From NCBI RefSeq assembly GCF_000745265.1, contig NZ_JQNN01000001.1:3410001-3474000 (forward strand): a stretch of 64,000 nucleotides of DNA, written 5' to 3'. The position numbers were made by a program, and so were the translations under genes. Of the stretch, positions 20,599 to 39,732 are shown in pieces; the stretch's first letter is position 1; every line of letters begins with the position of its first letter. Source of the DNA: Massilia sp. 9096. Its GTDB lineage: Bacteria > Pseudomonadota > Gammaproteobacteria > Burkholderiales > Burkholderiaceae_D. Below the pieces are notes generated by a model. It searched no databases. It was not told where the DNA came from and saw only the letters and a list, made by a program, of their open reading frames with translations.

Positions 20599-20652
20599 CT
20601 ATATTCTTGTGGGATACTCTTGCCCTTGATACAGCAGTGTACATCGGACCTT

Positions 20653-24400: not shown

Positions 24401-24983
24401 CCTGCTGCTCCTGGTTGGACTGGCCGGCGCGCTGGATCTCGACGTAGAAGTGGCCCGGGAAGATCTGCGCCCAGCGTTGTGCGCAGGCCTCGGCCTTGGC
24501 CAGGTCGCCGTTGTCGATGGCCTGGCCGACGTCGCCGAACTGGGCGCCCGACAGCACGATCAGCGCGTTCGACTGCGGCACGTCCGGCTCCAGCGTCGAC
24601 ACGGACGTGGCCAGCGCTTCCAGCCACTCGACGCGGATCTCGGCCCGGCCTTTGTACTGGTTGGTGAGCCAGGCCTTGGACAGCAGCTCGCAGATCTGCA
24701 GGTAGCCGGTCTTGTTCTTGGCCAGGATCAGGAGGCGGAACGGCTTGTCGCGGTTCTCGTCGTTGGTGATCCAGGCGTCGACCCCGACGATCGGCTTGAC
24801 CCCTTTCCCGCGCGCGGCCTTGTAGAAGCGGACCAGGGCGAAGGCGTTGGCCAGGTCGGTCACCGCCAGCGCCGGCTGGCCGTCCTTGACGGCGGCCGCG
24901 ACCAGGTCGTCGATGCGGACCAGGCCGTCGACGATCGAGTATTCCGAATGGACGCGCAGGTGGGTAAAAGTCGGAGAAGTCAT
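21477..24983 (-). CDS. dnaE: DNA polymerase III alpha subunit
   Basis: The 1168-residue replicative polymerase (E. coli DnaE is 1160). N-terminal PHP domain (FTHLRVHSEYSIVDGL and onward), polymerase palm with catalytic Asp residues in MPDFDIDFCQEKRE (about 410-423), GPGRGSGAGSLVAYAL, the AMGKKKAEEM finger block, HhH region, and OB-fold plus C-terminal domain. A housekeeping gene inside the glycan region; it separates the LPS-core genes from the O-polysaccharide genes. It converges on the GT2 with overlapping stops. Confidence 0.97.
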   Translation of the reverse strand: MTSPTFTHLRVHSEYSIVDGLVRIDDLVAAAVKDGQPALAVTDLANAFALVRFYKAARGKGVKPIVGVDAWITNDENRDKPFRLLILAKNKTGYLQICELLSKAWLTNQYKGRAEIRVEWLEALATSVSTLEPDVPQSNALIVLSGAQFGDVGQAIDNGDLAKAEACAQRWAQIFPGHFYVEIQRAGQSNQEQQVRHSVALASTLGLPVVATHPVQFIKKEEFIAHEARVCIAEGEMLANAKRVRRFNEDMCFKSQAEMAELFKDLPGALANSVEIAKRCNVTLTLGKPQLPNFPTPGMTIDEYLVAETKRGLEERLLQLYPDLEVREKERPRYEARLEFENNTIIKMKFPGYFLIVAEFIQWGKNNGVPIGPGRGSGAGSLVAYALKITDLDPLKYNLLFERFLNPERVSMPDFDIDFCQEKRELVIQHVKDLYGRDAVSQIATFGTMAAKGAIRDVGRVMDFGYTFCDGISKLIPFKPGKPVSIAEAIEEEPLLKERLENEEEVRQLLDLAQQVEGITRNIGMHAGGVLIAPGKLTDFCPLYTQGGDAGVVSQYDKDDVEAAGLVKFDFLGLTTLTILDRAVNYIRALDPQDAGFNLESLPLTDRPSYKLLTEAKTVAVFQLESRGMQGMLKDARPDRFEDIIALVALYRPGPMDLIPDFCKRKHGEKFDYPDPRTESILSETYGIMVYQEQVMQMAQIVGGYSLGGADMLRRAMGKKKAEEMAEHRAIFRAGAAKDGLSTEKADEIFDLMEKFAGYGFNKSHAAAYALLSYHTAYLKVHHTAAFMAANMSLAMEDTDKIKILVEDSIDVCKLTILPPDVNESQFRFTPEGPPRSVTGKQVSNIRYGLGGVKGAGQGAIEAIIAARESKGDKGGKFKDLFDFCLRVDRKQINRRTIESLIRAGAMDCFGVDRAVLLASVGFAMEAAGQAAAAANQVSLFGGDDADLVAPPEYLKATPWTDREKLKEEKLALGFYLSGHMFDSYAGEVRRFAKTKLKDLEPSRDPRMLCGVITGVRTQMTQRGKILIVSLDDKTGVVEVTIYNELLEQNKNFFREDEFLLVVGKVSEDRFNGGLRITAEKVFDIAAARVQYGHKLEMDLACTANTAKLAEILQPYRQHDGLPVSLRIAPQGIPCIMQLGDGWRVAPSDELKHALELQLGAKEVAVEY

Positions 24984-25243: not shown

Positions 25244-27511
25244 ATGACTTCGCCGTACCTGCGCGACACCGCACACGGCACCCTGCTCGATTTGCTGATG
25301 GCTGCACCCGACGGCGACAAGCCCGCCCACAGTGCCGGTTGCAGCAGCGCCGGGCGCGCCATCGCCCTGCTGCCGCCGGCCGGTCCCGGCATCGTGCCCG
25401 CGGGCGCCGGTCCGGCGCCCAGCCGCGCCCTGCTGCGAAGCCTGGGTGCGCCGCTGATGCTGGCGGCCCGCCTGGTGATGCGCCGTCCGCCGGTGCGCCG
25501 GATGGCGCTGCGCCTCCTGAAGCACTCGCCGCGCCTGTATGCACGCGCCTACCGGATGATGATGGCCTCCGGCGGCGCCGCGCCGGCGCCGGGCGCGCGT
25601 GCCGACACCGACCGGAACGATGGGTTGTCGCCGCGCGCGCGCGCCATACTGCGCATCTTGCAGGCGCCGGCGCCCCGGGCGCCCGGGGCGCGCGCGCGCC
25701 TGGCCTTCGTCTCGCCCTTGCCGCCGGCCCGCACCGGTATCGCCGTCTACGCGGTCGAGCTGCTGGCCGAACTGATCGACGATTTCGACATCGAGCTGGT
25801 GGTGGCCCAGCCCGAGGTGACGCTGCCGCCCGCCCTTTCCCACTTGACGGTGCGCCAGGCCGACTGGTTTGCCGAGCACGGCGGCGAGTACGACCAGGTG
25901 CTCTACCAGATTGGCAACAGCCCCTTCCACAGCCATATGTTCGCGCTGCTGGAACGCCATCCCGGGGTGGCGGTGCTGCACGACTTCTTTCTCGGCGGCG
26001 CGCTCGTGCATGCCCAGATGAGCGGCGCCGATCCGCGCGCATGGAGCGATGCGCTGCGCCATTCGCACGGGTACGCAGCCGTGCTGGCCAGCCAGATGGG
26101 CGGGAGCCAGGGCCTCGCGCACAAGGATTGGCCCAGCAGCCTGCCGGTACTCGAACACGCCACCCGGACCATCGTCCATTCGCGCTACGCGCGCCAGCTG
26201 GCGGCCGACTGGTTCGGCCAGGACGCCGCGCGCGGCATCGACGTCATCCCGCATCCGCGCACGCCGCCCGCCCGCATCGACCGCGCCGCCGCGCGCGCGG
26301 CGCTCGGCATCGACGACGATTGCTTCCTGGTCTGCAGCTTCGGCTTCGTCGCACCCAACAAGCTCAATCACGAACTGCTGCGCGCATGGATCGGCGCGAA
26401 CCTGCATACCGACCGCCGCTGCGCCCTGGTGCTGGCCGGCGCCAATCACGACAGCCCGTACGGCATGGAAGTCGAGGCGCTGATCCGCAGCGCCGGCCCG
26501 GACGCCAACATCCGCATCGCCGGCTGGCTCGACGACGCGGCGTACCGCCAGTATCTGCAGGCAGCCGACGTGGGCGTCCAGCTGCGCACGAATGCACACG
26601 GCGAAAGCTCGGGGGCGGTCCTCGACTGCATGAATTACGGCTTGCCGACGATCGTCAACGCCAACGGCTCGATGGCCGAATTCCCGCCGGACGCGGTGTG
26701 GCGCCTGCCGGACGAGTTCCAGGTCGGTGAACTGGGATCGGCCCTGCAAGCCTTGCGCCGCGACCCCGCATTGCGCCGCGCCTTCGGCGAGCGCGCGGTC
26801 GCCTACCTCGACGCCGGCATGCGCCCCGCGCAGTGCGCGCGCCTGTATCGCGATACGCTCGCGCGCGCGCGCGCCGCCGCGGATGCCCAACGCCAGGCCT
26901 GGTTGTCGGCCCAGGCCGCGGCCGGGCCGGCGGACGAGGATGCGCTACGCCGCCTCGCGCAACGCCTCGCGCAAGCGTCCGCACGGCCGGGCCGGCGCCA
27001 GCTGCTGGTCGACGTCAGCGATTGGAACGATGGCGGCACGCCGGATGCGCTGGCGCGGGCGCAGTTGCTCGAGCTGCTTGGGCAGGCGAGCCAGGCGGGC
27101 GTGCGGGTCGAGCAGGTGTACCTGGACGGGATCGGCGAAAGCGCGCGCTACCGCTACGCGCGCAACGCGACCGCGCGTCTGCTGGGGCTGCGCTGGCCGC
27201 CGCAGGACGAGCCGCCGGTCGATGCCGTCGCCGGCGACGTGTTGTATGCCGCCGACGCCTTGTCGCCGGCGCTGCGGGCGGCGGCGCAGGCCGGGGTGCT
27301 GGCGGCGCTGCGTGCGCGCGGGATTGCGATCCACGTGCTGCTGCGTGCCGACGCCCTGGCCGGCGAAGACGTGGCGGCGCGGCTGCGCAGCGTCGCGGAC
27401 TGCGCCGACCAACTCATCTGCGCTTCGGCTTCGCAGGCACAGGAAGTCGTTCGCTTGCTGTCGCAATCCGATGCGGCTGCGGCGATTCCTCGGCAGCTTG
27501 CCGGCATATAA
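25244..27511 (+). CDS. Large glycosyltransferase: tail module, GT4 (module B) and a decayed half GT domain (module C)
   Basis: A 755-residue cytoplasmic protein. Residues about 63-140 are a basic tail module (MRRPPVRRMALRLLKHSPRL, then LSPRARAILRILQ). Residues about 151-545 are a GT4 domain, beginning LAFVSPLPPARTGIAVYAVE and including DQVLYQIGNSPFHSHMF, CSFGFVAPNKLNHELL and GESSGAVLD. Residues about 583-755 (RRQLLVDVSDW, RYRYARNATARLLGL, GDVLYAADALS, then RARGIAIHVLLRADAL) align with the N-terminal half of the third GT module of the 33241-36348 gene; the nucleotide-sugar-binding half is missing. Probably one active transferase acting on O-polysaccharide. Residues 1-60 are unrecognised and the start may be later. 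Confidence 0.8.
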   Translation: MTSPYLRDTAHGTLLDLLMAAPDGDKPAHSAGCSSAGRAIALLPPAGPGIVPAGAGPAPSRALLRSLGAPLMLAARLVMRRPPVRRMALRLLKHSPRLYARAYRMMMASGGAAPAPGARADTDRNDGLSPRARAILRILQAPAPRAPGARARLAFVSPLPPARTGIAVYAVELLAELIDDFDIELVVAQPEVTLPPALSHLTVRQADWFAEHGGEYDQVLYQIGNSPFHSHMFALLERHPGVAVLHDFFLGGALVHAQMSGADPRAWSDALRHSHGYAAVLASQMGGSQGLAHKDWPSSLPVLEHATRTIVHSRYARQLAADWFGQDAARGIDVIPHPRTPPARIDRAAARAALGIDDDCFLVCSFGFVAPNKLNHELLRAWIGANLHTDRRCALVLAGANHDSPYGMEVEALIRSAGPDANIRIAGWLDDAAYRQYLQAADVGVQLRTNAHGESSGAVLDCMNYGLPTIVNANGSMAEFPPDAVWRLPDEFQVGELGSALQALRRDPALRRAFGERAVAYLDAGMRPAQCARLYRDTLARARAAADAQRQAWLSAQAAAGPADEDALRRLAQRLAQASARPGRRQLLVDVSDWNDGGTPDALARAQLLELLGQASQAGVRVEQVYLDGIGESARYRYARNATARLLGLRWPPQDEPPVDAVAGDVLYAADALSPALRAAAQAGVLAALRARGIAIHVLLRADALAGEDVAARLRSVADCADQLICASASQAQEVVRLLSQSDAAAAIPRQLAGI

Positions 27512-27512
27512 T
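27507..27512 (+). promoter_or_regulatory. Candidate -10 box for trhO
   Basis: A perfect TATAAT overlaps the stop of the preceding glycosyltransferase gene and lies 34 bp before the trhO ATG. The -35 region (GATTCC at 17 bp) is poor, so an activator or a weak promoter is likely. Confidence 0.4.
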
Positions 27513-27545
27513 AGCGGTTGACTGGAATTACGCTTCTTAGCAATC

Positions 27546-28442
27546 ATGCAAACCACACCTGATCAAACGGCGCTGGCCGGCGCCACGAGTGCCGATCATC
27601 GCTACGTCAACATCGCCGCCTACAAATTCATTTCCTTCGACGATACCGAAGAGATGCGCCCGCAGTTCCAGGCGCTGTGCACGCAGCTGCATTTGAAGGG
27701 CACGATCCTGCTGACGCCGGAAGGCATCAACATGTTCCTGTCCGGGCTGCCCGCCGACATCGAGCACTACCTGTCCTGGCTGCGCAGCGATCCGCGCTTC
27801 GCCGACATCGAAGTCAAGTACAGCTATTCGAACGAACAGTCGCACCGGCGCATGCTGGTGCGCATCAAAAAAGAAATCATCACGATGCGCATGCCGCTGA
27901 TCAAGCCCGAGCTAGGCCGCGCACCTTCCGTCGAGCCGGCTACGCTCAAGCGCTGGCTCGACCAGGGCCACGACGATGCCGGCAAGCCGGTCGTGATGGT
28001 CGACACGCGCAACGATTTCGAGGTCGACGTCGGCACCTTCGACAATACCGTCGACTACCGGATCGGCAAGTTCACGGAGTTCCCGGCCGTGATCGAGCAG
28101 CACAAGGCCGATTTCGCAGGCAAGACCGTGGTGACTTTCTGCACCGGCGGCATCCGCTGCGAAAAGGCGGCGATCCACATGCAGAACATCGGCTACGACA
28201 ATGTCTACCAGCTCGAGGGCGGCATCCTGAAATACTTCGAGGACGTCGGCGGCGACCATTACACGGGCGACTGCTTCGTGTTCGACTACCGCACCGCGCT
28301 CAATCCCAAGCTCGAGCCGACCGAAACCGTCCAGTGTTTCGCTTGCCGCGCCGTGGTGACGCCGCGCCAGCAGCTGGATCCGGCCTATGTGGCCGGCACA
28401 TCCTGTCCGCACTGCGCGGACAAGAAGACGGCGGCGCAATGA
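27546..28442 (+). CDS. trhO: tRNA uridine(34) hydroxylase TrhO (YceA, rhodanese-fold)
   Basis: A 298-residue protein of the TrhO family, which hydroxylates U34 of some tRNAs to 5-hydroxyuridine using O2. N-terminal UPF0176 domain with [19 protein letters not shown] (residues about 52-70). A rhodanese domain follows with VDTRNDFEV and the active-site loop [10 protein letters not shown], Cys at 199. The C-terminus holds two CxxC pairs, CFACRAVV and CPHC, probably zinc-binding. It is unrelated in function to the flanking glycan genes; the next small gene overlaps its stop (ATGA). Confidence 0.93.
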
Positions 28443-28717
28443 CGGCAAAGCGGCTGGCGCGCCAGCTCGTCAAGACGATCGCCTTGCGCGGGGTCGCATT
28501 CGTGGTCGCCCGGCCGCGGCTGGACGAGTTCCTGCGCCGCCAGCTCTACCGCTTCCCCGGACTGGCCGGGCGCGCACGCGCGGCCGTGGCCCGTTCGCGC
28601 CGGGCCGACTGGCAGACTTTGCCGGTCCTGCTCGCGGATGAAGCCGAACTCAGCGAAAGCGCGCGCCAGGTCTTGCAGGATCTGCGGCGCGCGCTCGAGC
28701 GCACCCGCACGCCGTAA
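28439..28717 (+). CDS. Small basic protein, stand-alone tail module of the glycosyltransferase cluster (92 aa)
   Basis: A 92-residue basic protein. The segments [24 protein letters not shown] (abridged) and [17 protein letters not shown] match, in order, the tail modules in the N-terminus of the 25244 glycosyltransferase and the C-terminus of the 32123 protein. Amphipathic, Arg-rich helices suggest a role in docking glycosyltransferases to each other or to the membrane; this is inference. Its ATG overlaps the trhO stop and it ends 17 bp before the next large glycosyltransferase. Too short to assign a catalytic function. Confidence 0.65.
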
Positions 28718-28734
28718 CCCTTACCGATACCCAG

Positions 28735-31683
28735 ATGCGCATCATCCTCGACCTGCAAGCCTGCCAGGCTTCCAGCATGCACCGCGGCATTGGCCGCTAT
28801 TCGATGGCGCTCGCGCTGGCCATGGCGCGCAACAGCGCGGGGCATGAGCTGCGCATCGTGCTGAACGAACACTACCCCGACAGCGCCGCTACGATCCGGG
28901 CAGCCTTCGACGGCCTGCTCCCGCAGTCGCACATCACGACCTTCGTCGCGCCGCTGCCGGTGGGCGAAGTCGATCCGCGCAACGCCTGGCGCGTGCGCAC
29001 CGCCGAACGGATCCGCGAACACCACCTGGCCAGCCTGCGCCCGGACATCGTCCACGTCGCCAGCCTGTTCGAGGGGCTCGGCGACAACGTGGTGTCCTCC
29101 GCGCTGCATGGCAACGATCGCTTCGATACGGCGATCACGCTGTACGACCTGATCCCGCTGATGCGCAAGGAACGCTATCTGAGCGACCCCAACGCGGCCG
29201 CCTGGTATTACCGCAAGCTCGAGAGCCTGAAGAACGCCGCTCTGCTGCTTGCCATCTCGGGCTCGGCGCGCGAAGAAGGCATCGACCTGCTGGGATTGCC
29301 CTCGGAGCGCGTCGTGAACATCTCGTCGGCGGTCGACGCCATCTTCCAGCCACGCACGCTGGCGCCGGGCGCGCGCACCGAGCTGCTGGAGCGCCATGGC
29401 CTGAAGCGCGAATTCATCATGTACACCGGCGGCATCGACTACCGGAAGAACATCGAAGGCCTGATCGAGGCCTACGCGCTGTTGCCTGCACAGCTGCGCC
29501 GGCAGTACCAGCTGGCGGTTGTCTGCAGCGTCCATGAGCCGGATCGCCTGCGCCTGCAGCGCCTGGCGGCGAAATTCGGCCTGTCGAACGACGACCTGGT
29601 GCTGACCGGCTTCGTGTCCGACGACGACCTGGTCTCGCTCTACAACTGCACGACGCTGTTCGTATTCCCGTCGCTGCACGAGGGATTCGGCTTGCCCGCG
29701 CTGGAGGCGATGGCGTGCGGCGCGCCGGTCATCGGTTCGAACACCAGCAGCATTCCGGAAGTGATCGGGCGCAGCGATGCCATGTTCGATCCGGCCAGCG
29801 CCGGCGCGATCAGCACTGCGATGGCGGACGTGCTTGGCGACCCCAAGCGACAGGCCGAACTGCGTGCCCACGGCCTCGTTCAGGCAAGCCGCTTTTCGTG
29901 GGATGCCAGTGCCAGGCGCGCAATCGACGCGTTCGAAGAAGTCCACCGGCGCCGTCTGGCGTCGCACGGCACGAGCGTGGCCATGCCGGCTGACACGGCG
30001 CCGCGCCGGCCACGGCTGGCCTTTGTATCGCCGCTGCCGCCGGCGCGCTCCGGCATTGCCGCCTACAGTGCCGACCTGTTGCCGGAACTGGCCCGACACT
30101 ACGATATCGACCTCGTGCTGGCGCAGGACAGTGTCGACGACCCTGCCCTGGACACGCGCTTCGCGCAACGCACGGTCGAGTGGTTCGACGCCAATGCGCA
30201 CGTGTTCGACCACATCGTCTACCAGTTCGGCAATTCGACCTTCCATACGCATATGTTCGGCCTGCTGGAGCGTCGTCCAGGCGTAGTCGTGCTGCACGAT
30301 TTCTTCCTGAGCGGCGTCATCAGCCATACCGAAGCCGACCATCATCTGCCGAATCAGTATGCCCGGTCGCTGTACCAGGCGCACGGCTACCAGGCACTGG
30401 TCGAGGAAAAACGGGAAGGCCGCACTGTCTCTTGCCAGACCTATCCGTGCAATAAATCCGTGCTCGACCGGGCAACCGGCGTGATCGTGCATTCGGCCCA
30501 TGCGGTCGCGCTGGCGCGCCGCTGGTACGGCCCGGACTTCCCCGCCGACTGGCGCGTGCTGCCGCTGGTCTGCCTGCGTCCCGACCAGGGCAGCGACGTC
30601 GACCGGACCGCTGCGCGCGCCATGGACCGGGCCGAACTCGGCTTCAGCCCCGACGACTTCGTGGTGTGCTCATTCGGTATCCTGTCGGCGCCGAAATGCA
30701 ACGACAGGCTGGTCGAGGCCTGGATCGACAGTGTCCTCGCACGCGATCCGCGCTGCCACCTGGTGTTCGTGGGCGAAGTCGCGCCCGGCCGCTTCGGCAT
30801 CGCGCTGCGCGACCGGATCGCGGCCCATCCGCGCATCCGCATCACCGGCTATGCCAGCACCGAACTCTATCGGCGCTACCTGAATGCGGCCGATCTGGCG
30901 GTGCAATTGCGCGGCACTTCGCGTGGCGAGACCTCGGGCGCGGTATTCGACTGCCTGTCTTATGGCCTGCCCACGATCCTGAACGCCCATGGGTCGGCGG
31001 CCGAAGTGCCTGCCGGCCTCTGCCTGCGTCTCGACGACACATTTACCCAGGACGCGCTGCGCCAGGCCATGGAAGACATGCACGGCGACGCGGCGCTGCG
31101 CGACCGCCTCGGTAGCGCCGCTGCCGACTACATGAGAACGACGCACGCGCCGGTGCGTATTGCCGAGCTGTACCGCGACGCGATCGAGCAATTTGCGCGC
31201 GACAGCGAAAATGCAGCCGAGCAGAGGCTGATTGCCTCCCTGCCCGGGCTCGGAGCAGACGTACCCACGCAGGACCTGCTGCAAACCGCTGCGTCGATTG
31301 CTGCCAACCGCGCGCGCCCCCGCGTGCGTCAGTTGCTGGTCGATGTCGCCACTTTGGCGGCTGAAGATTTGGCCGGGCAAGAATGGCTGCGGGTATTGAT
31401 TGCCCGACCTCCAGCCGGCTGGCGCATCGAGCCGGTGCGCCACGACGGCGCCTTCTACCGTTATGCGCGCCGTTTTACGCTCGAGCTGATCGGATGCGGT
31501 GACCTGCTGATGGAGGACGATGTCGTTGAACCCGGGAACGGCGATATGCTGCTGTTGGACGACGAGGCAAGCGCCACTGCCGTGCCGGCGAAGTGGCGCA
31601 CGCGCGGCGTCGCGGTTGGCAAGATTGACTTCGCTTCGACACTGGCGCCCACGAGCACTGTACCAGCAATATCGATAGCTTAA
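28735..31683 (+). CDS. Two-headed glycosyltransferase: GT4 module A, GT4 module B, and a truncated module C
   Basis: A 982-residue cytoplasmic protein. Module A (residues 1 to about 405): MRIILDLQACQ, GIGRYSMALA, YTGGIDYRKN, and the GT4 EX7E motif EGFGLPALE near residue 316. Module B (about 424-815): LAFVSPLPPARSGIAAYSAD, HIVYQFGNSTFHTHMF, CSFGILSAPKCNDRLVEAW, GETSGAVFD near 731. Residues about 862-982 are the first part of a module C Rossmann domain (VRQLLVDVATL, FYRYARRFTLELIG, KWRTRGVAVGK), ending where the family would continue into VVYDLIP. Likely transfers two sugars in O-polysaccharide synthesis. Followed by a 439-bp low-coding gap. Confidence 0.85.
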   Translation: MRIILDLQACQASSMHRGIGRYSMALALAMARNSAGHELRIVLNEHYPDSAATIRAAFDGLLPQSHITTFVAPLPVGEVDPRNAWRVRTAERIREHHLASLRPDIVHVASLFEGLGDNVVSSALHGNDRFDTAITLYDLIPLMRKERYLSDPNAAAWYYRKLESLKNAALLLAISGSAREEGIDLLGLPSERVVNISSAVDAIFQPRTLAPGARTELLERHGLKREFIMYTGGIDYRKNIEGLIEAYALLPAQLRRQYQLAVVCSVHEPDRLRLQRLAAKFGLSNDDLVLTGFVSDDDLVSLYNCTTLFVFPSLHEGFGLPALEAMACGAPVIGSNTSSIPEVIGRSDAMFDPASAGAISTAMADVLGDPKRQAELRAHGLVQASRFSWDASARRAIDAFEEVHRRRLASHGTSVAMPADTAPRRPRLAFVSPLPPARSGIAAYSADLLPELARHYDIDLVLAQDSVDDPALDTRFAQRTVEWFDANAHVFDHIVYQFGNSTFHTHMFGLLERRPGVVVLHDFFLSGVISHTEADHHLPNQYARSLYQAHGYQALVEEKREGRTVSCQTYPCNKSVLDRATGVIVHSAHAVALARRWYGPDFPADWRVLPLVCLRPDQGSDVDRTAARAMDRAELGFSPDDFVVCSFGILSAPKCNDRLVEAWIDSVLARDPRCHLVFVGEVAPGRFGIALRDRIAAHPRIRITGYASTELYRRYLNAADLAVQLRGTSRGETSGAVFDCLSYGLPTILNAHGSAAEVPAGLCLRLDDTFTQDALRQAMEDMHGDAALRDRLGSAAADYMRTTHAPVRIAELYRDAIEQFARDSENAAEQRLIASLPGLGADVPTQDLLQTAASIAANRARPRVRQLLVDVATLAAEDLAGQEWLRVLIARPPAGWRIEPVRHDGAFYRYARRFTLELIGCGDLLMEDDVVEPGNGDMLLLDDEASATAVPAKWRTRGVAVGKIDFASTLAPTSTVPAISIA

Positions 31684-32122
31684 TAAGTCATTAAGTTTTA
31701 CGCACTGAATAGTGTACCTCGCTGCTCGCCTAGGATATCAAACCAAGAAATGTCCATTGAATGAGCAATCGCATTTGCGCATGCTGGCGCGCGTCAAGCC
31801 AGCTCGGCCGCCCGAAGTCGAAGGGAAAGCGCTGGAGCGCAGGCTTGATCGAGACCGCAATGCGATTGGCAAGCTGCGAGCAATGGTAGAAAGTGGGTTT
31901 GTCTGCGCGTGCAACTGGACGCAACACTATTTAGCACTAAGGAAACTTTAGCCCCCCTGTTACTCAGCATAGATTACAATGTTATTCATGCATTGAGTGA
32001 CCAGGAGTACTTTCTTCATACCAACGGGTTTGGGCTCACCGCCCCCGTTTTCTCTCCGGCGAAGAACCGGATAAGCCCGCTATATTGCCTGGTCATCGCC
32101 TCACGATTAAACACATATTGCG
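31684..32122. other. 439-bp lower-GC gap without a convincing gene
   Basis: Base composition is visibly more AT-rich than the neighbours. A 79-codon open frame (31712-31951) has no family resemblance, no ribosome-binding site and unlike codon use. TACAAT at 31975-31980 might be a -10 for the next gene but lacks a -35. The gap may mark a deletion or recombination scar in the O-antigen locus. Confidence 0.4.
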
Positions 32123-33241
32123 ATGAGTTTCCCTTCTTACGCTCCAGCCCTGGAAGACATGGCCCTATGGCGCCTTCTCCGGCACATCACCAACGGCTTT
32201 TACATCGATATTGGTCCGCCGGAAGTCGGCGCTGAATCACACGGTCTCGCTCTGTACGAACTGGGATGGAAAGGCGTGCACGTGGTGCCTGACCTCAACG
32301 CGCTTGCGCTACCCGGCTCCGTGCAAGCCGAGCCGGCAAGGACACTCGACACCTTGTTCATTCAACTCGGCGTCGAAGCGATCCACTGCCTGCGGCTCGA
32401 TCTGCGCCAAGCAGTCGCCCTGCCCTTTCCCGGCTGGACCGATGCCGCGCCGCGTCCCTGGGTGGTATTGATCTATCTGTTTGACCAGAAAGACAGCGCG
32501 CCCGCATGGGAAGCACAACTGTTTGACAAGGGCTATCTCCTGGTCGGCGCCTCGGATGACAGCCGCGCTTACGTGCATGCCGACTGCCCCTTGGCGCAAA
32601 CCCTGCAGCGTGACGCAGCATCCCTATCCTCGTCCCACGAGCCGGTGGCGTCAGAACCAGCCGAGACGCCCCTGCAATACCTGCATGCCCGCATGCAGAA
32701 GGCCGAACAGGCGGCGCGCGACACTGCGCAACGCCTCGCCGAGGCCGAAGCGAAACTGGTGCAGGCCGAAGCGCGCGCCGCACAAGCGCAACTGGACACC
32801 CTTGCGGCGCTGGCCGGAGCGCGCCAGATCGCGATCCTGCAGCATCAGTTACATGATGTGTATGCCAGCACCTCCTGGCAAGTCACCAAGCCGATGCGCT
32901 GGCTATCGCGCCTGCGCCGCTCTCCTCGTACCGCGCTGCCCGAGCTGGGCAGGGTATCGCGCGCGACCACGCGCCGGCTTGGCGGTGCCGTCACGCGCCG
33001 GCTGATCGATGTCGTGCGCGCCAGCCCGAGCCTGAAACGGGTCGCCCTGCGTTTTCCGACGGTCGTACAACGCTTCCAGGGACACATCAGGGAAGAGCTG
33101 GCCACGATATCGCCGGCTGCCCAGGTCATGCCGGCGCCGGCGCCGGCCAATCGCACCACCGTGCTCGGCCCGCGCTTCCGGGCGCTCATCCTCGACGAAA
33201 TCCAACGCTACGAGGACCCTCAATATCAAGGAAAGCTGTAA
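32123..33241 (+). CDS. FkbM-like methyltransferase domain (shrunken, probably inactive) with coiled coil and tail module
   Basis: A 372-residue protein. Residues 1-160 follow an FkbM-type methyltransferase: MSFPSYAPALEDMALWRLL, GFYIDIGPPEVGAESHGLALYE (abridged), RPWVVLIYLF, GYLLVGASDDSRAYVH. The usual block between the second strand (VEP) and the TLDxLL segment, about 70-80 residues carrying much of the SAM site, is missing. The conserved acids are changed (VVPD for VEP; LRLDLRQ for LKIDVEG). Residues about 181-250 are a coiled coil, then STSWQVTKPMRWL and a basic tail with LKRVALRFP. It may now serve as a scaffold. Stop and next start overlap as TAATG. Confidence 0.7.
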   Translation: MSFPSYAPALEDMALWRLLRHITNGFYIDIGPPEVGAESHGLALYELGWKGVHVVPDLNALALPGSVQAEPARTLDTLFIQLGVEAIHCLRLDLRQAVALPFPGWTDAAPRPWVVLIYLFDQKDSAPAWEAQLFDKGYLLVGASDDSRAYVHADCPLAQTLQRDAASLSSSHEPVASEPAETPLQYLHARMQKAEQAARDTAQRLAEAEAKLVQAEARAAQAQLDTLAALAGARQIAILQHQLHDVYASTSWQVTKPMRWLSRLRRSPRTALPELGRVSRATTRRLGGAVTRRLIDVVRASPSLKRVALRFPTVVQRFQGHIREELATISPAAQVMPAPAPANRTTVLGPRFRALILDEIQRYEDPQYQGKL

Positions 33242-36200
33242 TGCGTTTGATTTTCGATTTGTTTCCATGTCAGACGGATTCGCGCTTTCGAGGAATCGGC
33301 CGTTATACCCTGTCCCTGGCCAAGGCAATGGCGGCGCAGGCGGGCAAGCATGATCTGCGTCTGCTCGCCAACGGCCTGTATCCGCAGACGGCGGCGCGTC
33401 TGCGCGAAGCATTTGCGGGGACCGTGCCAGCCGGCGCGTACGCGACCTATACCCACCCGCCCATGGATCCCCACAATACGGATGCCTTGGAACGCGAGCA
33501 GATCGCCTCGGCCCTCATCCACGCGGGCTACCAGAGCATCGGCGCCGATGCGATACTTTGCGCCAGTCCCTTCGAAGGCTGGTGCGAGCGCGGCGTCGTG
33601 CCGCAAGGGCAAGGTAACTTTCCTGCGGGTCTGAAAGTTGCCATCCTCTACGATTTCATCCCGTGGTTGTTTCCACAACAGCACCTTGACCCCGTGCCGA
33701 ATTATGCGCGGTGGTACGAGCGGCGTCTGGACGCGCTGCGGCGATACGACCTGCTGCTCGCCATTTCCGAAGCGACGCGCGCTGACGCTATCCGCCTGCT
33801 TGGATGCGCGCCCGAATCGGTGGTGAACATATCGGGCGCCGCCGATTCGATGTTCAGGAAGCTCGCGCCATCCGAGCTCGATGCGATCGACTTGCGCCGC
33901 TTTGGCATCTACCGCCCCTTCGTGCTGTACACCGGAAACGGCGACTACCGGAAAAACCTGCTCGGCATGCTGGAAGCATTCGCAAAACTGCCGCGTCAGA
34001 TCCGTGCGATGCACCAACTGGTAGTCAACCAAGTAGGCGATATCGACCAGTTCAATGCGCACGTCGCGGCTTGCGGGCTGAGCAGGCATGACGTGATCGT
34101 GACCGGGCATATCACCGACAAGGAACTGGTGGCACTGTACAACCGCTGCACCGTGTTCGTCTTCCCGTCGCTGTACGAAGGATTTGGCCTGCCGGTGCTC
34201 GAGGCAATGGCATGCGGCGCCGCCGTGATTGCGGCCGACAACTCATCTATTCCGGAAGTGGCGGGCCGTCAGGACCTGCTGTTCGACGCGTCGTCGACCG
34301 AGTCGATCAAGACCAAGCTACTGCACGCCTTGGCCGACGAACCCTGGCGTACCGAGCTACAAGCATTCAGCTTGGCTCGTGCAAAACAGTTCAGCTGGGA
34401 CAAGACGGCGCACCTCGCATGGCAAGCCATCGATGCCGCCGTACAGCGGCGCCAGGGCCGGTCTGCCAGGACGACTCCACACGCGCGCGTGGCCGCCCTT
34501 ATTGCGCTGCCGCCCGGACTGGCGCAGGACCATGCCACGCGCACCCTGTCGAACCTGTCGGCATCGTTCAAGATCGAGATCGTTCACGAGCATGCCGAGG
34601 CCAGCCGTGCGCCTGCTGGCGATAACGTTCTGTCGCGCCGATCCCTGCCCAAGCAGTGGAACCGCTTCGATACGGTGTTCTATATTGCCACCAGGGAGAC
34701 CTTGACGCCGGACCTGATTCAGTTGATCCGTTCGGCGCCGGGCGTGCTTCTGTTACAAGACTCTCCCAGCGCCGATGGTGACGCGCCGGCAGCGCTGCCC
34801 GGCACCGAGGACGAAGTCAACCTAGTACTGCGCGATGATGGTCTTCAAGGACTGGTTGCGCGACACCAGCGCCGCAGCAATCGGACCGGCTCCGCGCTGC
34901 CGCTCAGCCGCAGCCTGCTCGAGGCCGTGCATAGCCTGGTGGTGGAAGACAGCCGACTTGCTGCCGAATTGCGCCGCGACTACGGCACGCTGTTCCTGCC
35001 GGCCCTGTTCGAGCTGGCCCCGGGTGGCGCCGGCCAGGCCGCGGCGGCGAAGACGCTGGCCGACGCCATTTTGACTGCCGTCGAGCGCAATTGGCGCCGT
35101 TCGGCGAGCCAGATCGCCGCCGCATGGCGCGGCAGCGTCCCCGACAATGTCTTGCTCGACGACGTATCGCAACATGCCGAACGCAACCTGCGCCTGAACC
35201 GCACACCGCGTCTGCTCATCGACGTCACTCAACTGGCGCGCACCGATGCGCTCAGCGGCATCCAGCGCGTGGTGCGCAACATCGCGCGCGATATGTGCCA
35301 GATCGAGAACTCGACCCTGCCCGTGGAACTCGTACAGTTGCGCGACGGCGGACTGTACCGCGCCAGCGGCGTGGTCGGCTCGATCTTCGAGATCGGCGCC
35401 CATGCCTGCCCCGACGAACAGATCGACATCCAACCGGGCGACATCCTGTTCATGATCGACTCGTCGTGGGAACAGTATCCGCAGTTCTTGCCGGTCTTTG
35501 ACGCCGTGCGCCAGTTCGGTGGACGCATCGTAACGGTCGTGTACGACCTGATCCCCCTACGCATGTCGCAGTTCTGCAGCGCCGGGCTGGTAGCGGTGTT
35601 CCAGCACTGGTTCCGCCTGGCGGTAAAGCACAGCGATATGCTGTTGTGCATTTCGCGTGCGGTACGCGACGACGTTAATGCCTACATCGCGGAACATGCG
35701 CTCGAGCGCGACCATGCGTTGCGCGTCGAGTACTGGCACCTCGGCGCCGATATCCTGCCGCTGGTGGCCGACGGCAGCGTGCGCCCTGCGGTAACTCGGT
35801 TGGTCGAAGAGACGTCGAGCCCCCTGTTCCTCATGGTCGGAACAATCGAGCCGCGCAAGGGTCACGCCGTCGTGCTCGATGCTTTCGAAGCGCTGTGGAC
35901 GAGCGGCAGCCAGGCGCGCCTGTGCTGGGCTGGCAAGGAAGGCTGGGAAGTCGATGCATTGATGGCGCGGGTACGGAATCACCCGGAACTTGGCAAGCGC
36001 TTTCATTTCATTGAACGCTTCTCGGACGCCGAAATCAACCTGTGCTATGCGCATGCGCATGCGCTCATCGCCGCCTCGGTCGCCGAAGGCTATGGTCTGC
36101 CGATCGTCGAAGCCGCCCAGCATCAGGTCCCGGTACTGGCGAGCGATATCGCGGTGTTCCGAGAAGTGGCCGGCGATGGCGCACGTTACTTTCCGGTCGG

Positions 36201-36348
36201 GGACCGACAGGCGCTGGCTGCACTGGTGGGCGAATTCATGGGTTACGATGCCGACATGCGCGGTTCGATGGCGGGGCGCGTACCCATCCTCACTTGGCAG
36301 GAAAGCGCTGCATGGGCATTACGTCTGATTTATTCAACGTTCGATTAA
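33241..36348 (+). CDS. Two-headed glycosyltransferase: GT4 module A, ghost of module B, GT4 module C
   Basis: A 1035-residue cytoplasmic protein. Module A (1 to about 405): MRLIFDLFPCQ, GIGRYTLSLA, YTGNGDYRKN, EGFGLPVLE near residue 313; it is clearly paralogous to module A of the 28735 gene. Residues about 413-640 keep the outline of a module B N-domain (VAALIALPPG, FKIEIVHEHAE, NRFDTVFYIATRETL, APGVLLLQDS) but no second half. Module C (about 654-1035): PRLLIDVTQLA, GIQRVVRNIARDM, TVVYDLIPL, GTIEPRKGH, EGYGLPIVE near 948. Two active transferases are expected, probably polymerising the O-polysaccharide repeat for Wzm/Wzt export. Confidence 0.86.
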   Translation: MRLIFDLFPCQTDSRFRGIGRYTLSLAKAMAAQAGKHDLRLLANGLYPQTAARLREAFAGTVPAGAYATYTHPPMDPHNTDALEREQIASALIHAGYQSIGADAILCASPFEGWCERGVVPQGQGNFPAGLKVAILYDFIPWLFPQQHLDPVPNYARWYERRLDALRRYDLLLAISEATRADAIRLLGCAPESVVNISGAADSMFRKLAPSELDAIDLRRFGIYRPFVLYTGNGDYRKNLLGMLEAFAKLPRQIRAMHQLVVNQVGDIDQFNAHVAACGLSRHDVIVTGHITDKELVALYNRCTVFVFPSLYEGFGLPVLEAMACGAAVIAADNSSIPEVAGRQDLLFDASSTESIKTKLLHALADEPWRTELQAFSLARAKQFSWDKTAHLAWQAIDAAVQRRQGRSARTTPHARVAALIALPPGLAQDHATRTLSNLSASFKIEIVHEHAEASRAPAGDNVLSRRSLPKQWNRFDTVFYIATRETLTPDLIQLIRSAPGVLLLQDSPSADGDAPAALPGTEDEVNLVLRDDGLQGLVARHQRRSNRTGSALPLSRSLLEAVHSLVVEDSRLAAELRRDYGTLFLPALFELAPGGAGQAAAAKTLADAILTAVERNWRRSASQIAAAWRGSVPDNVLLDDVSQHAERNLRLNRTPRLLIDVTQLARTDALSGIQRVVRNIARDMCQIENSTLPVELVQLRDGGLYRASGVVGSIFEIGAHACPDEQIDIQPGDILFMIDSSWEQYPQFLPVFDAVRQFGGRIVTVVYDLIPLRMSQFCSAGLVAVFQHWFRLAVKHSDMLLCISRAVRDDVNAYIAEHALERDHALRVEYWHLGADILPLVADGSVRPAVTRLVEETSSPLFLMVGTIEPRKGHAVVLDAFEALWTSGSQARLCWAGKEGWEVDALMARVRNHPELGKRFHFIERFSDAEINLCYAHAHALIAASVAEGYGLPIVEAAQHQVPVLASDIAVFREVAGDGARYFPVGDRQALAALVGEFMGYDADMRGSMAGRVPILTWQESAAWALRLIYSTFD

Positions 36349-36524: not shown

Positions 36525-37325
36525 ATGATCACGTTCGCCACCATCGACAGTATCTGGCGTTACCGCGGCTTTATCAGCGGCAGCGTCAAACGGGAATTCC
36601 AGAACAAATACCGCAATTCGCTGCTGGGTGCGGCCTGGACCGTGCTCAACCCGCTGGCGATGATCATCGTATATACGGTGATTTTTTCGGAAGTCATGGG
36701 CAACCGACTACGAGGGGTCAACTCGACGTTTGCATACAGTATCTATCTTTGCGCGGGTACACTGACCTGGGCACTGTTTGCGGAAATCACCGGTCGCAGC
36801 CAGACCGTGTTCCTCGAACACGCGAACCTGATCAAGAAGCTTCAATTTCCGCGCCTTTGCCTGCCGATCATCGTGGTCCTGAATGCCTGTGTCAACTTCG
36901 GCATCATTTTTGGACTGTTCACGCTGTTCCTTGTAGTGTCCGGCACTTTCCCCGGATGGATTTACTTGGCGATATTCCCGGTCTTGCTCATCCAGATCCT
37001 GTTCGCGATCGGACTGGGCATGATTCTCGGGGTAATGAACGTGTTTTTCCGCGACGTCGGCCAGTTTTTCTCGATTTTGCTGCAATTCTGGTTCTGGTTT
37101 ACGCCGATCGTGTATCCGGTGACGACCTTGCCTCCGGCCGCCCGGGATCTGCTCGGCTGGAATCCCATGGTGCCGATCATTACTTCTTATCAGAACATAC
37201 TGTTGTACGGCCATGCGCCGCAGTGGGGTTCGCTGCTGCCGGTGACGTTACTGGCTGCCGTTCTGTGCATTCTAGGTATGAAAATATTCCGCAAACGCGC
37301 GGGTGAAATGGTGGATGAGCTGTAA
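36525..37325 (+). CDS. wzm: O-polysaccharide ABC exporter permease (Wzm type)
   Basis: A 266-residue ABC-2 type membrane protein with six hydrophobic helices. It starts with the cytoplasmic gate-helix region typical of Wzm/KpsM/TagG: FISGSVKREFQNKYRNSLLGAAWTVLNPLA (abridged; residues about 18-47). With Wzt it exports undecaprenyl-linked O-polysaccharide across the inner membrane. Its stop overlaps the wzt start as TAATG. Confidence 0.9.
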   Translation: MITFATIDSIWRYRGFISGSVKREFQNKYRNSLLGAAWTVLNPLAMIIVYTVIFSEVMGNRLRGVNSTFAYSIYLCAGTLTWALFAEITGRSQTVFLEHANLIKKLQFPRLCLPIIVVLNACVNFGIIFGLFTLFLVVSGTFPGWIYLAIFPVLLIQILFAIGLGMILGVMNVFFRDVGQFFSILLQFWFWFTPIVYPVTTLPPAARDLLGWNPMVPIITSYQNILLYGHAPQWGSLLPVTLLAAVLCILGMKIFRKRAGEMVDEL

Positions 37326-38545
37326 TGGGAAGTATTCGCGTCAACAAGTTAGGCAAGGCCTACAAGCAATACGATAACCGGTGGGGGCGGCTCTTGGAGT
37401 GGGTATTCCCTTTCCTAGGGCCGCGGCACCGACAGAAATGGGTGTTGCAGGACATCAGCTTCCAATTGGCTCCGGGTGAAGCCGTCGGTATCATCGGCAT
37501 CAACGGTGCGGGCAAAAGTACCCTGCTCAAGCTGATCACCGGGACGGCCCAGCCGACGACCGGCAGCGTCGTCATGGACGGGCGAGTCGCCGCCCTGCTC
37601 GAGCTTGGCATGGGTTTCCATGCTGATTTTACGGGGCGCCAGAATGCGTACATGGCCGGCCAGCTGATCGGACTGACGGTCGATGAGATTACGACCCTGA
37701 TGCCGCAGATTGAGGAATTCGCCGATATCGGCGAATACATCGACCAGCCGGTGCGAGTGTACTCGTCCGGCATGCAGATGCGCCTCGCCTTCAGTGTCGC
37801 GACAGTGAAACGGCCGGACATTCTGATCGTCGACGAAGCACTGTCGGTAGGTGACGCCTACTTCCAGCACAAGAGCTTCGACCGCATCCGCCAGTTCCGG
37901 CAGCTGGGCACCACCCTGCTCATCGTCAGCCACGACCGCACCGCAATGCAATCCATCTGCGACCGTGCGATCCTGCTCGACGGCGGTTTTCTGGCCAAGC
38001 AAGGAAGTCCGGAAGAAGTCATGGATTACTATAATGCGCTGATCGCGGAGCGCGAAGGTTCCAGCATCAAGCAAGTTGTGACGACCGAGGGACGCGTGCA
38101 GACCAGTTCGGGCAGTGGGGAAGCGCAGGTCACCGATATCACTCTGGAGAACGAACAGGGCTCGCCATCGGAAATCGTGAATGTCGGTGCGCCGGTCACG
38201 CTGCGCATCAAGGTACGCATCAATGCGCCTGTACCGCGCCTCGTGATCGGCTACATGATCAAAGATCGCCTGGGACAGCAAATTTTCGGCACCAATACCC
38301 ATCACCTGGAGAAGCCTCTCACCGACCTGCAGGCCGGCGACACCGTGGATTACGTATTCCGGTTTCCGCTCAACCTCGGCCCGGGCAGCTATTCTGTCAC
38401 AACCGCCCTGACCAGCAATGAAACCCACCTGGCCAACAATTACGAATGGCGCGACCTGGCCTTCCTGTTCATCGTCATGAACATGAATCGGCGTCATTTC
38501 GTGGGCACGAACTGGATTGAACCTGAGGTAGAAATCGTACGATGA
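37325..38545 (+). CDS. wzt: O-polysaccharide ABC exporter ATPase with carbohydrate-binding C-domain (Wzt type)
   Basis: A 406-residue protein. Residues 1 to about 245: ABC ATPase with Walker A GINGAGKSTLLKL (about 58-70), signature YSSGMQMRLAFSVA (about 145-158) and Walker B ILIVDEALSVGD. Residues about 255-406: a Wzt-type beta-sandwich (AQVTDITLENEQG, VGAPVTLRIKVRINAP, GYMIKDRLGQQIFGTNT) that in the family recognises the cap at the non-reducing end of the finished chain. This implies a terminating modification before export. The next gene, a methyltransferase starting 4 bp inside wzt, is the natural candidate to make that cap. Confidence 0.92.
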   Translation: MGSIRVNKLGKAYKQYDNRWGRLLEWVFPFLGPRHRQKWVLQDISFQLAPGEAVGIIGINGAGKSTLLKLITGTAQPTTGSVVMDGRVAALLELGMGFHADFTGRQNAYMAGQLIGLTVDEITTLMPQIEEFADIGEYIDQPVRVYSSGMQMRLAFSVATVKRPDILIVDEALSVGDAYFQHKSFDRIRQFRQLGTTLLIVSHDRTAMQSICDRAILLDGGFLAKQGSPEEVMDYYNALIAEREGSSIKQVVTTEGRVQTSSGSGEAQVTDITLENEQGSPSEIVNVGAPVTLRIKVRINAPVPRLVIGYMIKDRLGQQIFGTNTHHLEKPLTDLQAGDTVDYVFRFPLNLGPGSYSVTTALTSNETHLANNYEWRDLAFLFIVMNMNRRHFVGTNWIEPEVEIVR

Positions 38546-39732
38546 GCGAACAATTTTATCGAGCTTTTGAAGATCGCTATCGTGGATCGCGCGAACTGAT
38601 CAAGGATCGGCTGCGCGTCTATCTCGACTTCGTGTCGCCGCTGGCGGCCCTGTCGCAACCGCCGAGTGCGGTGGACCTGGGCTGCGGCCGCGGCGAATGG
38701 CTCGAGCTTCTTTCGGAGCAGGGCTTCGCAGCCCGCGGGGTCGATCTCGACACCGGCATGCTGGCTGCCTGCCGAGAACGCGGCTTGTCGGTCGACACGA
38801 TGGATGCGATCAGCGCCCTGAAATCGCTTCCGGAGAACAGCGTAGCTGTCGTTTCGGCCTTCCACCTGGTCGAACACCTGCCATTCGCAGCCCTGCAAGA
38901 GCTGGTCACCGAAGCCATGCGCGTGCTGCAGCCGGGCGGCTTGTTGATCATGGAAACCCCGAATCCGGAGAATCCGATGGTCGGCGCATGCAGGTTCTAT
39001 CTCGACCCGTCTCACGTCAAGCCAATACCGCCGCTACTGCTGGCATTCCTGGCGGAATATGCCGGCTTCGCGCTTACCAAAATCGTGCGTCTGCAGGAGG
39101 ATCCAGCTCTGCATACGGACCAGCCGCTTCGGCTGATCAATGTTTTCGACGGCGCCAGTCCGGACTACAGCGTCGTGGCACAGAAGGCGGCTCCGGAAGC
39201 GGTGCTCCAACTGTTCGAACAACAATTTGCGCGGAACTTCGGCCTGTCGTTGGGCGATCTCGCGGAGCGCTTCGACCAGGCGCGCACGCAACAATACCGT
39301 CAGCTGTCGGACGCTACTGGGCAAAACTATCTGCATTTGTCAGACAAGGTCGAGCAGCAATACCAGACATTGCTGGCTCAGCAGCACACGCAGGAAGCAA
39401 AAAGCAACACGCTGAGCGAACAGATTGCAGCTTCGGTAGCGAAGTACGATAGCGATCAGATGGCGACGACGATGCAATTGGCGAACTCTAGCAGCCTGCT
39501 CTTGCAGGTGCAGGCGCGCGAGATGGAGTTGAACAAAAAGGTAGTCGAGATCGGGCAACAACTGGCTGTTATCGAAACCCGCTTCGCTGAAAAGGAGTCG
39601 AGCATGGGCCAGTTGCAGGCAGAGCTGGCTTCGACCAGGCTCCTGCTCGAAGCGACCTTCGCCAGCACGTCATGGCGTCTCACGAAGCCGCTACGTTGGC
39701 TGGGCGGCCTGGTTCGACGCCCCCGCCGCTGA
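38542..39732 (+). CDS. SAM-dependent methyltransferase with long coiled coil; candidate O-antigen chain terminator
   Basis: A 396-residue protein. Residues about 1-200 are a class I methyltransferase: motif I VDLGCGRGEWLELL (about 35-48), acidic residue in GVDLDTGML, VVSAFHLVEHLPF, and LQPGGLLIMETPNPEN. Residues about 215-370 are a heptad-rich coiled coil. The C-terminus STSWRLTKPLRWLGGL is shared with the FkbM-like protein at 32123. WbdD of E. coli O8/O9a likewise caps the chain and measures length with a coiled coil; the resemblance is architectural only, as no kinase domain is present. ATGA overlap with wzt supports joint function. Confidence 0.82.
   Translation: MSEQFYRAFEDRYRGSRELIKDRLRVYLDFVSPLAALSQPPSAVDLGCGRGEWLELLSEQGFAARGVDLDTGMLAACRERGLSVDTMDAISALKSLPENSVAVVSAFHLVEHLPFAALQELVTEAMRVLQPGGLLIMETPNPENPMVGACRFYLDPSHVKPIPPLLLAFLAEYAGFALTKIVRLQEDPALHTDQPLRLINVFDGASPDYSVVAQKAAPEAVLQLFEQQFARNFGLSLGDLAERFDQARTQQYRQLSDATGQNYLHLSDKVEQQYQTLLAQQHTQEAKSNTLSEQIAASVAKYDSDQMATTMQLANSSSLLLQVQAREMELNKKVVEIGQQLAVIETRFAEKESSMGQLQAELASTRLLLEATFASTSWRLTKPLRWLGGLVRRPRR

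What the first reader, a model, noticed from the sequence alone, without database searches (positions are those of the whole stretch)
25244..36348. Three giant glycosyltransferases look like differently decayed copies of one ancestral three-module (A-B-C) enzyme
Seen by reading: the 28735 and 33241 proteins share module A (GIGRY, YTGGIDYRKN/YTGNGDYRKN, EGFGLPxLE). The 25244 and 28735 proteins share module B (LAFVSPLPPARxGIAxY, Y-x-GNSxFHxHMF). 33241 keeps a full module C (VVYDLIP, EGYGLPIVE). The other two end in only the N-half of module C (RQLLVDV, RYAR, RARGIAI/RTRGVAV). 33241 has a ghost B N-domain between A and C. So 25244 = B + half C, 28735 = A + B + half C, 33241 = A + half B + C. Inference: duplication followed by complementary loss splits a polymerase's linkages over three proteins, a way of evolving a new O-antigen repeat.
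Basis: partly seen in the sequence, partly recalled or inferred. Interest (0 to 1): 0.82.

Follow-up and report, generated by a model that had tools for sequence, protein, structure and literature searches.

The report
Sugar-polymer enzymes with amputated half-modules
Three large enzymes in a bacterium's surface-sugar gene cluster descend from three-part sugar-chain builders that lost catalytic halves but kept the partner halves, which suggests one way that bacteria may change their surface coats.

Summary
The 25244, 28735 and 33241 proteins (p25, p28, p33) are B+half-C, A+B+half-C and A+half-B+C. Profile comparisons tie each half to its own module (E 1.4e-21 to 2.6e-37). The two that I modelled show the pattern of an N-terminal GT-B Rossmann domain. 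Intact A-B-C proteins exist, in at least 11 of 61 genus genomes.

Module trees put the three proteins in three different A-B-C lineages, and AU tests reject one clade of truncated forms. Loss was therefore independent, and not complementary: A and B survive twice, C once.

New here: each protein sits with a remnant of a WbdD-like methyltransferase/coiled-coil gene, whose tail recruits WbdA in E. coli. The tail is fused to p25's N-terminus, is a free conserved 92-aa ORF (28439-28717) before p28, and belongs to a degenerate protein before p33. The WbdD-docking stretch of WbdA lies in the kept half of module C.

Best reading: donor domains were lost, silencing linkages, while acceptor halves remain as docking or spacing parts. 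The origin is well supported; the retained function is inferred. New variant of a known kind.

The parts
25244..27511 (+). p25, 755 aa: WbdD-like tail + module B + half module C
25391..25678 (+). p25 residues about 50-145: tail of a coiled-coil methyltransferase in front of module B
25691..26902 (+). p25 module B (BN+BC), GT-B fold
26993..27502 (+). p25 half module C (N-terminal Rossmann half only)
   Evidence: hhalign vs CN E 3.7e-28; b/a elements 585-753 in the model
28439..28717 (+). free 92-aa ORF = stand-alone WbdD-like tail; its ATG overlaps the trhO stop and it ends 17 bases before p28
   Evidence: tail HMM E 1.4e-9; same arrangement in 7 other p28-type loci; median dN/dS 0.27 over 28 pairs; no Pfam match at 0.001
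28735..31683 (+). p28, 982 aa: modules A + B + half module C
28735..29958 (+). p28 module A (AN+AC)
   Evidence: 43-46% identity to the first module of O9-type and O8-type WbdA
30007..31224 (+). p28 module B (BN+BC)
31324..31632 (+). p28 half module C, ending with the stretch aligned to the WbdD-docking region
   Evidence: hhalign vs CN E 1.4e-21; alignment, positions
32123..33241 (+). 372-aa degenerate methyltransferase-like protein + coiled coil + WbdD-like tail, directly upstream of p33
   Evidence: tail HMM E 4e-11 at residues 239-353; no family above a curated cut-off; methyltransferase ancestry and coil are read by eye
33241..36348 (+). p33, 1035 aa: modules A + half-B + C
33241..34455 (+). 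p33 module A (AN+AC)
34480..34989 (+). p33 half module B (N-terminal Rossmann half only)
   Evidence: hhalign vs BN E 2.6e-37; strands and helices 416-591 in the model
35035..35199 (+). helices 599-653 of p33, likely the terminal helices of module B left after loss of the donor domain
   Evidence: half-B profile end vs BC end E 1e-3, prob 22%; helices in the model
35203..36339 (+). p33 module C (CN+CC), whole
   Evidence: 36% identity to the second module of O9-type WbdA
36525..37325 (+). Wzm, O-antigen ABC transporter permease
   Evidence: PF01061 E 2.5e-25
37325..38545 (+). Wzt with C-terminal Wzt_C domain
   Evidence: PF00005 and PF14524 E 2e-39
38542..39732 (+). methyltransferase + coiled coil (MTcoil2), ends at the start of the tail; no polymerase gene follows, unlike relatives
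   Evidence: tail HMM positions 12-40 only; full tail + intact A-B-C in L017

Best explanation
The cluster makes an O-antigen exported by Wzm/Wzt. Its three large GT4 proteins come from three lineages of A-B-C polymerases related to WbdA, each of which had a WbdD-like methyltransferase/coiled-coil partner. SHOWN: each lost catalytic parts, in the half-modules by loss of the C-terminal (nucleotide-sugar-binding) Rossmann half of a GT-B module while the N-terminal (acceptor) half stayed, in p25 also by loss of all of A; and each still has a WbdD-like tail, as an N-terminal fusion (p25), a free 92-aa ORF (p28), or part of a degenerate methyltransferase-coil protein (p33). INFERRED: halves without a donor domain are catalytically silent. 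The kept half of module C holds the site by which WbdA docks on the WbdD tail, so it is kept to hold the enzyme in the membrane complex; half-B of p33 keeps the spacing between sites A and C. p33 (A+C, the composition of two-module O9-type WbdA) is the polymerase; p25 (B) and p28 (A+B) add other or primer residues. MTcoil2 caps the chain and Wzt's binding domain recognises the cap.
Against: Halves evolve about two to three times faster than whole modules, so constraint is weak. The docking stretch is shortened in p28. For module C a simple 3' truncation would leave the N half with no selection. The p28 half-C branch is long and unplaced, and proteins such as P0114 carry a c28-BC unit, so p28's half-C may have a more complicated origin. 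Half-B falls beside, not clearly inside, its A-B-C lineage. p28's half-C was not modelled. Sugars, donors and roles are not tested.
Confidence: 0.6

Rival explanations
1. Neutral relics: the halves are leftovers of truncation and internal deletion, carried because nothing removes them; they have no function of their own.
For: Halves diverge faster than whole modules with dN/dS 0.45-0.66; C halves sit at the protein end, where truncation trivially leaves the N part; p28's half-C is itself eroded to 105 aligned columns of a 185-position profile.
Against: 101 p25-type and 113 p28-type proteins keep the half (window's own included; these were found by searches with the window's proteins); dN/dS is below 1; the two modelled halves fold with good confidence; half-A, half-B and half-C all persist, half-A as a pooled profile of 34 survey ORFs.
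Confidence: 0.32
2. One reading: one A-B-C gene was duplicated in this locus and the copies lost complementary parts, splitting one polymerase over three proteins.
For: Three neighbouring, differently reduced homologues, each with a remnant of a methyltransferase-coil gene.
Against: Each protein's nearest kin include intact A-B-C proteins of its own lineage; one clade is rejected; p25 and p28 types occur with an intact A-B-C protein (L017); A and B stay whole twice.
Confidence: 0.05
3. Split-GT model: the orphan acceptor halves work in trans with a donor half from another protein, as in the two-protein Alg13/Alg14 GT-B enzyme (recalled, not looked up).
For: In the window only N halves are orphaned; a split GT-B is possible in principle.
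Against: No orphan donor half was found in the cluster. Of all proteins tallied, 20 had a C-only call: four with the c28-BC unit, the O8-type WbdA, and others that I take for single GT4 enzymes or fragments without having tested it.
Confidence: 0.03

Closest known systems
WbdA of the E. coli O9/O9a, Klebsiella O3 type (multi-module mannosyltransferase polymerase)
   Same: O9-type WbdA from an Enterobacter plasmid is A + C by the same HMMs; same Wzm/Wzt/WbdD-like gene company; modules are GT4-like.
   Different: No module B and no half-modules called. Adaptor enzymes are separate genes in the O8-type locus (WbdC annotated, its neighbour taken for WbdB by position); none was seen in this cluster.
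WbdA of the O8 type (three modules)
   Same: First module is A (46% to p28); 1213 aa; the type is described as having three modules (PMC11231755 passage).
   Different: Its second and third parts give no BN or CN match, so it is not an A-B-C protein in this sense.
WbdD (methyltransferase or methyltransferase/kinase, coiled-coil ruler, WbdA-recruiting C-terminus)
   Same: Tail homology of p25's N-terminus, the 92-aa ORF and the 32123 protein to O9-type and O8-type WbdD tails; MTcoil2 has a methyltransferase domain.
   Different: The tail is split off, fused to a GT, or attached to a degenerate methyltransferase; MTcoil2 lacks most of the tail.
Klebsiella O4/O7 systems with polymerase modules spread over several proteins (PMC11231755, passages)
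   Same: Shows that polymerase modules may sit on separate polypeptides.
   Different: Other GT families; half-modules are not mentioned in the passages seen.
Laboratory truncations of O9a WbdA (Liston et al. 2015; title seen in reference lists; contents recalled)
   Same: As recalled, deletion of the C-terminal catalytic site with the WbdD site kept gave a new polymer; p25 and p28 would be natural counterparts.
   Different: Natural and recurrent; the paper could not be opened.

Membership tests
WbdA-like O-antigen polymerase | two or more GT4 modules in one chain, homologous to WbdA modules | tested here: met
   p28 and p33 modules A match WbdA module A; p33 C matches O9-type WbdA module C. 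p25 has one whole module only and does not meet this.
WbdA-like O-antigen polymerase | gene company of Wzm, Wzt and a WbdD-like protein | tested here: met
WbdA-like O-antigen polymerase | makes a repeat-unit polymer from nucleotide sugars | not testable with these tools
   needs enzyme assay and O-antigen structure
WbdD-like terminator/ruler (MTcoil2, 38542-39732) | methyltransferase domain | tested here: met
   PF08241 E 6e-15 and others
WbdD-like terminator/ruler (MTcoil2, 38542-39732) | C-terminal membrane and WbdA-recruiting region | tested here: not met
   only tail positions 12-40 at its end; it is therefore not filed as a complete WbdD
GT4 (GT-B fold) for the whole modules | Glycos_transf_1 donor domain with GT-B fold | tested here: met
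   PF00534 in all three proteins; best Foldseek hits of p25 are GT-B glycosyltransferases such as 4xsu and 5d00
GT4 (GT-B fold) for the half-modules | donor (C-terminal Rossmann) domain | tested here: not met
   no AC, BC or CC stretch of the same module follows the halves; the two models show none there
Split GT-B pair (Alg13/Alg14-like) | partner protein bringing the donor half | tested here: inconclusive
   none seen in the cluster; whole genome not scanned

The most novel reading that the evidence does not exclude
Module silencing by donor-domain excision is a recurrent route by which WbdA-type polymerases change their repeat unit: half-A, half-B and half-C arise again and again, and the acceptor half is kept because it carries docking and spacing surfaces. 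In step, the WbdD partner is taken apart, its recruiting tail becoming a stand-alone 92-aa adaptor or an N-terminal fusion on the polymerase.
Probability: 0.4. Interest if true: 0.72.

Novelty: new variant of a known kind. Interest (0 to 1): 0.6.

Why it matters
How O-antigen repeat units change is an old question. This gives a natural series (A-B-C; half-A + B + C; A + half-B + C; A + B + half-C; B + half-C; A + half-B + half-C) in which each step removes a predicted linkage, so structure can be predicted from gene and tested by chemistry. It also makes a mechanical idea testable: that the acceptor half of a dead GT-B module survives as a docking part for the chain-terminating complex.

Tried and rejected
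Pfam and NCBIfam name only generic GT4 domains and do not see the halves. Single-sequence BLAST cannot establish half-B (E 0.009 and 0.08). p25 residues 1-150 against the module profiles: no match; BLAST of p25 1-150 against the 32123 protein: no hit; the homology appeared only with profiles.

I considered 'orphan halves are always N-terminal' as a proof of selection and rejected it as such: at the protein end truncation gives that for nothing, so only the A and B cases carry weight. I considered 'the CN half is hardly ever lost' (called in 440 of 448 proteins of at least 560 aa) and give it little weight, since the searches were seeded with proteins that have CN. The half-C tree for p28 and the half-B tree have long branches and were not used for the lineage claim.

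Own errors found: the first AU tests left out rows that lie inside the p28-type group (P0105, P0112, and L013 in the A test), which biases them towards rejection; repeat them with complete groups, and the rejection stands. The p33 line wrongly included L017's A-B-C protein; one search replaces it. One search stopped on a script error after L019 and was completed; one search likewise, completed.

Literature: searches listed no title or abstract start about half-modules in O-antigen polymerases; most subscription papers are not held, so this is weak evidence of absence. PMC9834719 (passages) reports wbaX-named glycosyltransferases beside wzm/wzt in Massilia and gene duplication there; the passages seen do not describe modules.

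Full report
WHAT IS THERE. The window lies in a 5.71-Mb genome whose named close protein relatives are mostly Massilia. Downstream of dnaE (21477-24983, minus strand) the order on the plus strand is p25 (25244-27511), trhO (27546-28442), a 92-aa ORF (28439-28717), p28 (28735-31683), a 372-aa protein (32123-33241), p33 (33241-36348), wzm, wzt and a methyltransferase-coil gene MTcoil2 (38542-39732). An ABC exporter (MsbA-like by my reading) and a gene with an O-antigen ligase domain lie on the other side of dnaE. Wzt carries the Wzt_C domain.

THE OBSERVATION. It is confirmed; numbers are in the observation check. The strength is in the profile comparison: each half family matches its cognate N-half and scores under 5% against the other module halves, save a 22% match of the end of half-B to the end of BC in the right order. 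The AlphaFold model of p33 (mean pLDDT 90.4, pTM 0.88) shows strands and helices 416-591 in the order of an N-terminal Rossmann domain, then helices 599-653, then module C. The model of p25 (82.1, 0.82) shows a b/a domain at 585-753. By its order of elements p33 looks as if the donor domain alone had been taken out of module B. This is read from secondary structure; coordinates were not superposed, and p28's half-C was not modelled.

INTACT AND PARTIAL FORMS ELSEWHERE. One search classed 364 proteins: the 120 best of each of three searches (of 3841, 6016 and 570 found) and four window proteins, two of which recur in the lists as P0001 and P0241. 113 are A-B-halfC, 101 B-halfC, 41 full A-B-C, 39 A-halfB-C, 33 A-C, 10 A-halfC, 10 halfA-B-C; the other 17 are rarer forms or, in one case, no GT. 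With a half-B HMM added, all 33 A-C proteins read A-halfB-C and all 10 A-halfC proteins read A-halfB-halfC. In the genus, 59 of 61 genomes, own included, match p25 at E 1e-30 or better. I took 59 stretches from the other 58 and annotated them (recount). In these stretches and the window: 9 genomes have a p25-type gene; 8 of these 9 also have a p28-type gene, one of which (L013) has lost the donor half of B as well; 11 have an intact A-B-C protein; three have a p33-type gene (own, L012, L019). L031 also has an A-B-halfC protein, but its A and B modules group with L030's intact protein and not with the p28 type. 34 further ORFs are B + C behind an N-terminal stretch (20 without and 14 with an AN call); pooled, that stretch matches the first 114 positions of AN (prob 99.2%, E 1e-19). 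Six ORFs have two C modules. Genes outside the stretches were not looked at. Full A-B-C proteins also occur in Novosphingobium, Paraburkholderia hiiakae and a Tissierellia bin.

LINEAGES. In the module B tree (88 rows) p25-type sequences form a group (100/100) inside a 37-row group (100/100) with intact genus A-B-C and half-A proteins; p28-type sequences (20 rows, 100/100, P0105 and P0112 included) fall in another group (94/93) with the intact A-B-C proteins L017_1250 and L032_1271. In the module A tree (96 rows) p28-type is next to those same two proteins (99/91), and p33-type lies in a separate 33-row group (100/99) with intact P0187, P0198, P0208, P0213 and others. The CN tree agrees for p33 (100/99) and, with moderate support (82-91 ultrafast bootstrap on the forks around it), for p25; the p28 half-C is on a long branch. 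Forcing p25-type and p28-type B modules (39 rows) into one clade costs 174 log units (p-AU 2e-65); forcing the p28-type and p33-type A modules (21 and 18 rows) together costs 287 (p-AU 3e-49). From tree positions I infer at least six separate donor-half losses (p25 C, p28 C, L031 C, p33 B, the P0154 group C, half-A at least once); this is a reading of trees, not a formal count.

CONSTRAINT. Median dN/dS: p28 A 0.22, B 0.26, half-C 0.45 (21 pairs, one with undefined dS for half-C); p25 B 0.26, half-C 0.60, tail 0.59 (28 pairs); p33 A 0.23-0.31, C 0.19-0.26, half-B 0.55-0.66 (3 pairs). These are simple Nei-Gojobori counts with dS mostly near or above 0.6; they show some constraint on halves, clearly weaker than on whole modules.

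MECHANISM. WbdD recruits WbdA to the membrane through its C-terminal region (PMC3482155, passage). The stretch of WbdA critical for this is given as Val548-Ile568 in the C module (PMC5529442, passage, citing Liston et al. 2015, which is not held). In the 841-aa Enterobacter protein I take this for 549-569, where residues 549 and 569 are V and I; it lies within CN (456-639). It aligns with p33 747-771, p25 674-703, and a shortened stretch of p28, 946-966, after which p28-type halves lose similarity. Hence the inference that half-C is kept as a docking face. WbdC and WbdB make the adaptor in the O9a system (PMC3482155 passage). No single-module GT4 gene was seen between dnaE and MTcoil2, though GT4 matches exist elsewhere in the genome; so p25 and p28 may fill such roles, and p33, with the A+C make-up of O9-type WbdA, the polymerase. 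The genome has two PF00953 genes (WecA/MraY family) elsewhere. Which sugars are used is unknown.

VERDICT. Real and more than chance; the ancestry from A-B-C enzymes and the loss of donor halves are well supported; the origin is several lineages and independent losses rather than one local duplication; the function of the kept halves is a testable inference.

Noticed in passing
32123-33241: 372-aa protein reads by eye like a degenerate FkbM-type methyltransferase followed by a coiled coil and the WbdD-like tail; no curated family fits.
   Followed up: partly
27546-28442: trhO (tRNA uridine hydroxylase) sits between p25 and the 92-aa ORF in the same orientation, and its stop overlaps the ORF's start.
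   Followed up: partly
34 ORFs of L020-L068: The commonest polymerase form in the survey carries a remnant of half module A in front of whole B and C; the four printed stretches are 133-141 aa.
   Followed up: partly
P0114, P0120 (1635-1636 aa); P0105, P0112: Proteins with A-B-c28-BC(-CN-CC), as if the segment BC-CN had been duplicated in tandem; in P0114 the extra BC has a changed donor motif by eye.
   Followed up: no
L012, L018, L019: p28-type loci with a short Wzt (247-250 aa, about 41% identity), by length without the carbohydrate-binding domain (domain not tested), so the window's cluster may be a recombinant of two kinds of export cassette.
   Followed up: no
L155 12060-13970: 636-aa protein with module A and a half-C only, beside another wzm/wzt cluster.
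   Followed up: no
L152 7733-7999 (Pseudomonas plasmid pA62H2): 88-aa protein before an A-B glycosyltransferase, weakly like the free tail (E 0.022).
   Followed up: partly
20620-21480: A GT2-type match (PF13641) at window 20671-20988, between the ligase-domain gene and dnaE.
   Followed up: no
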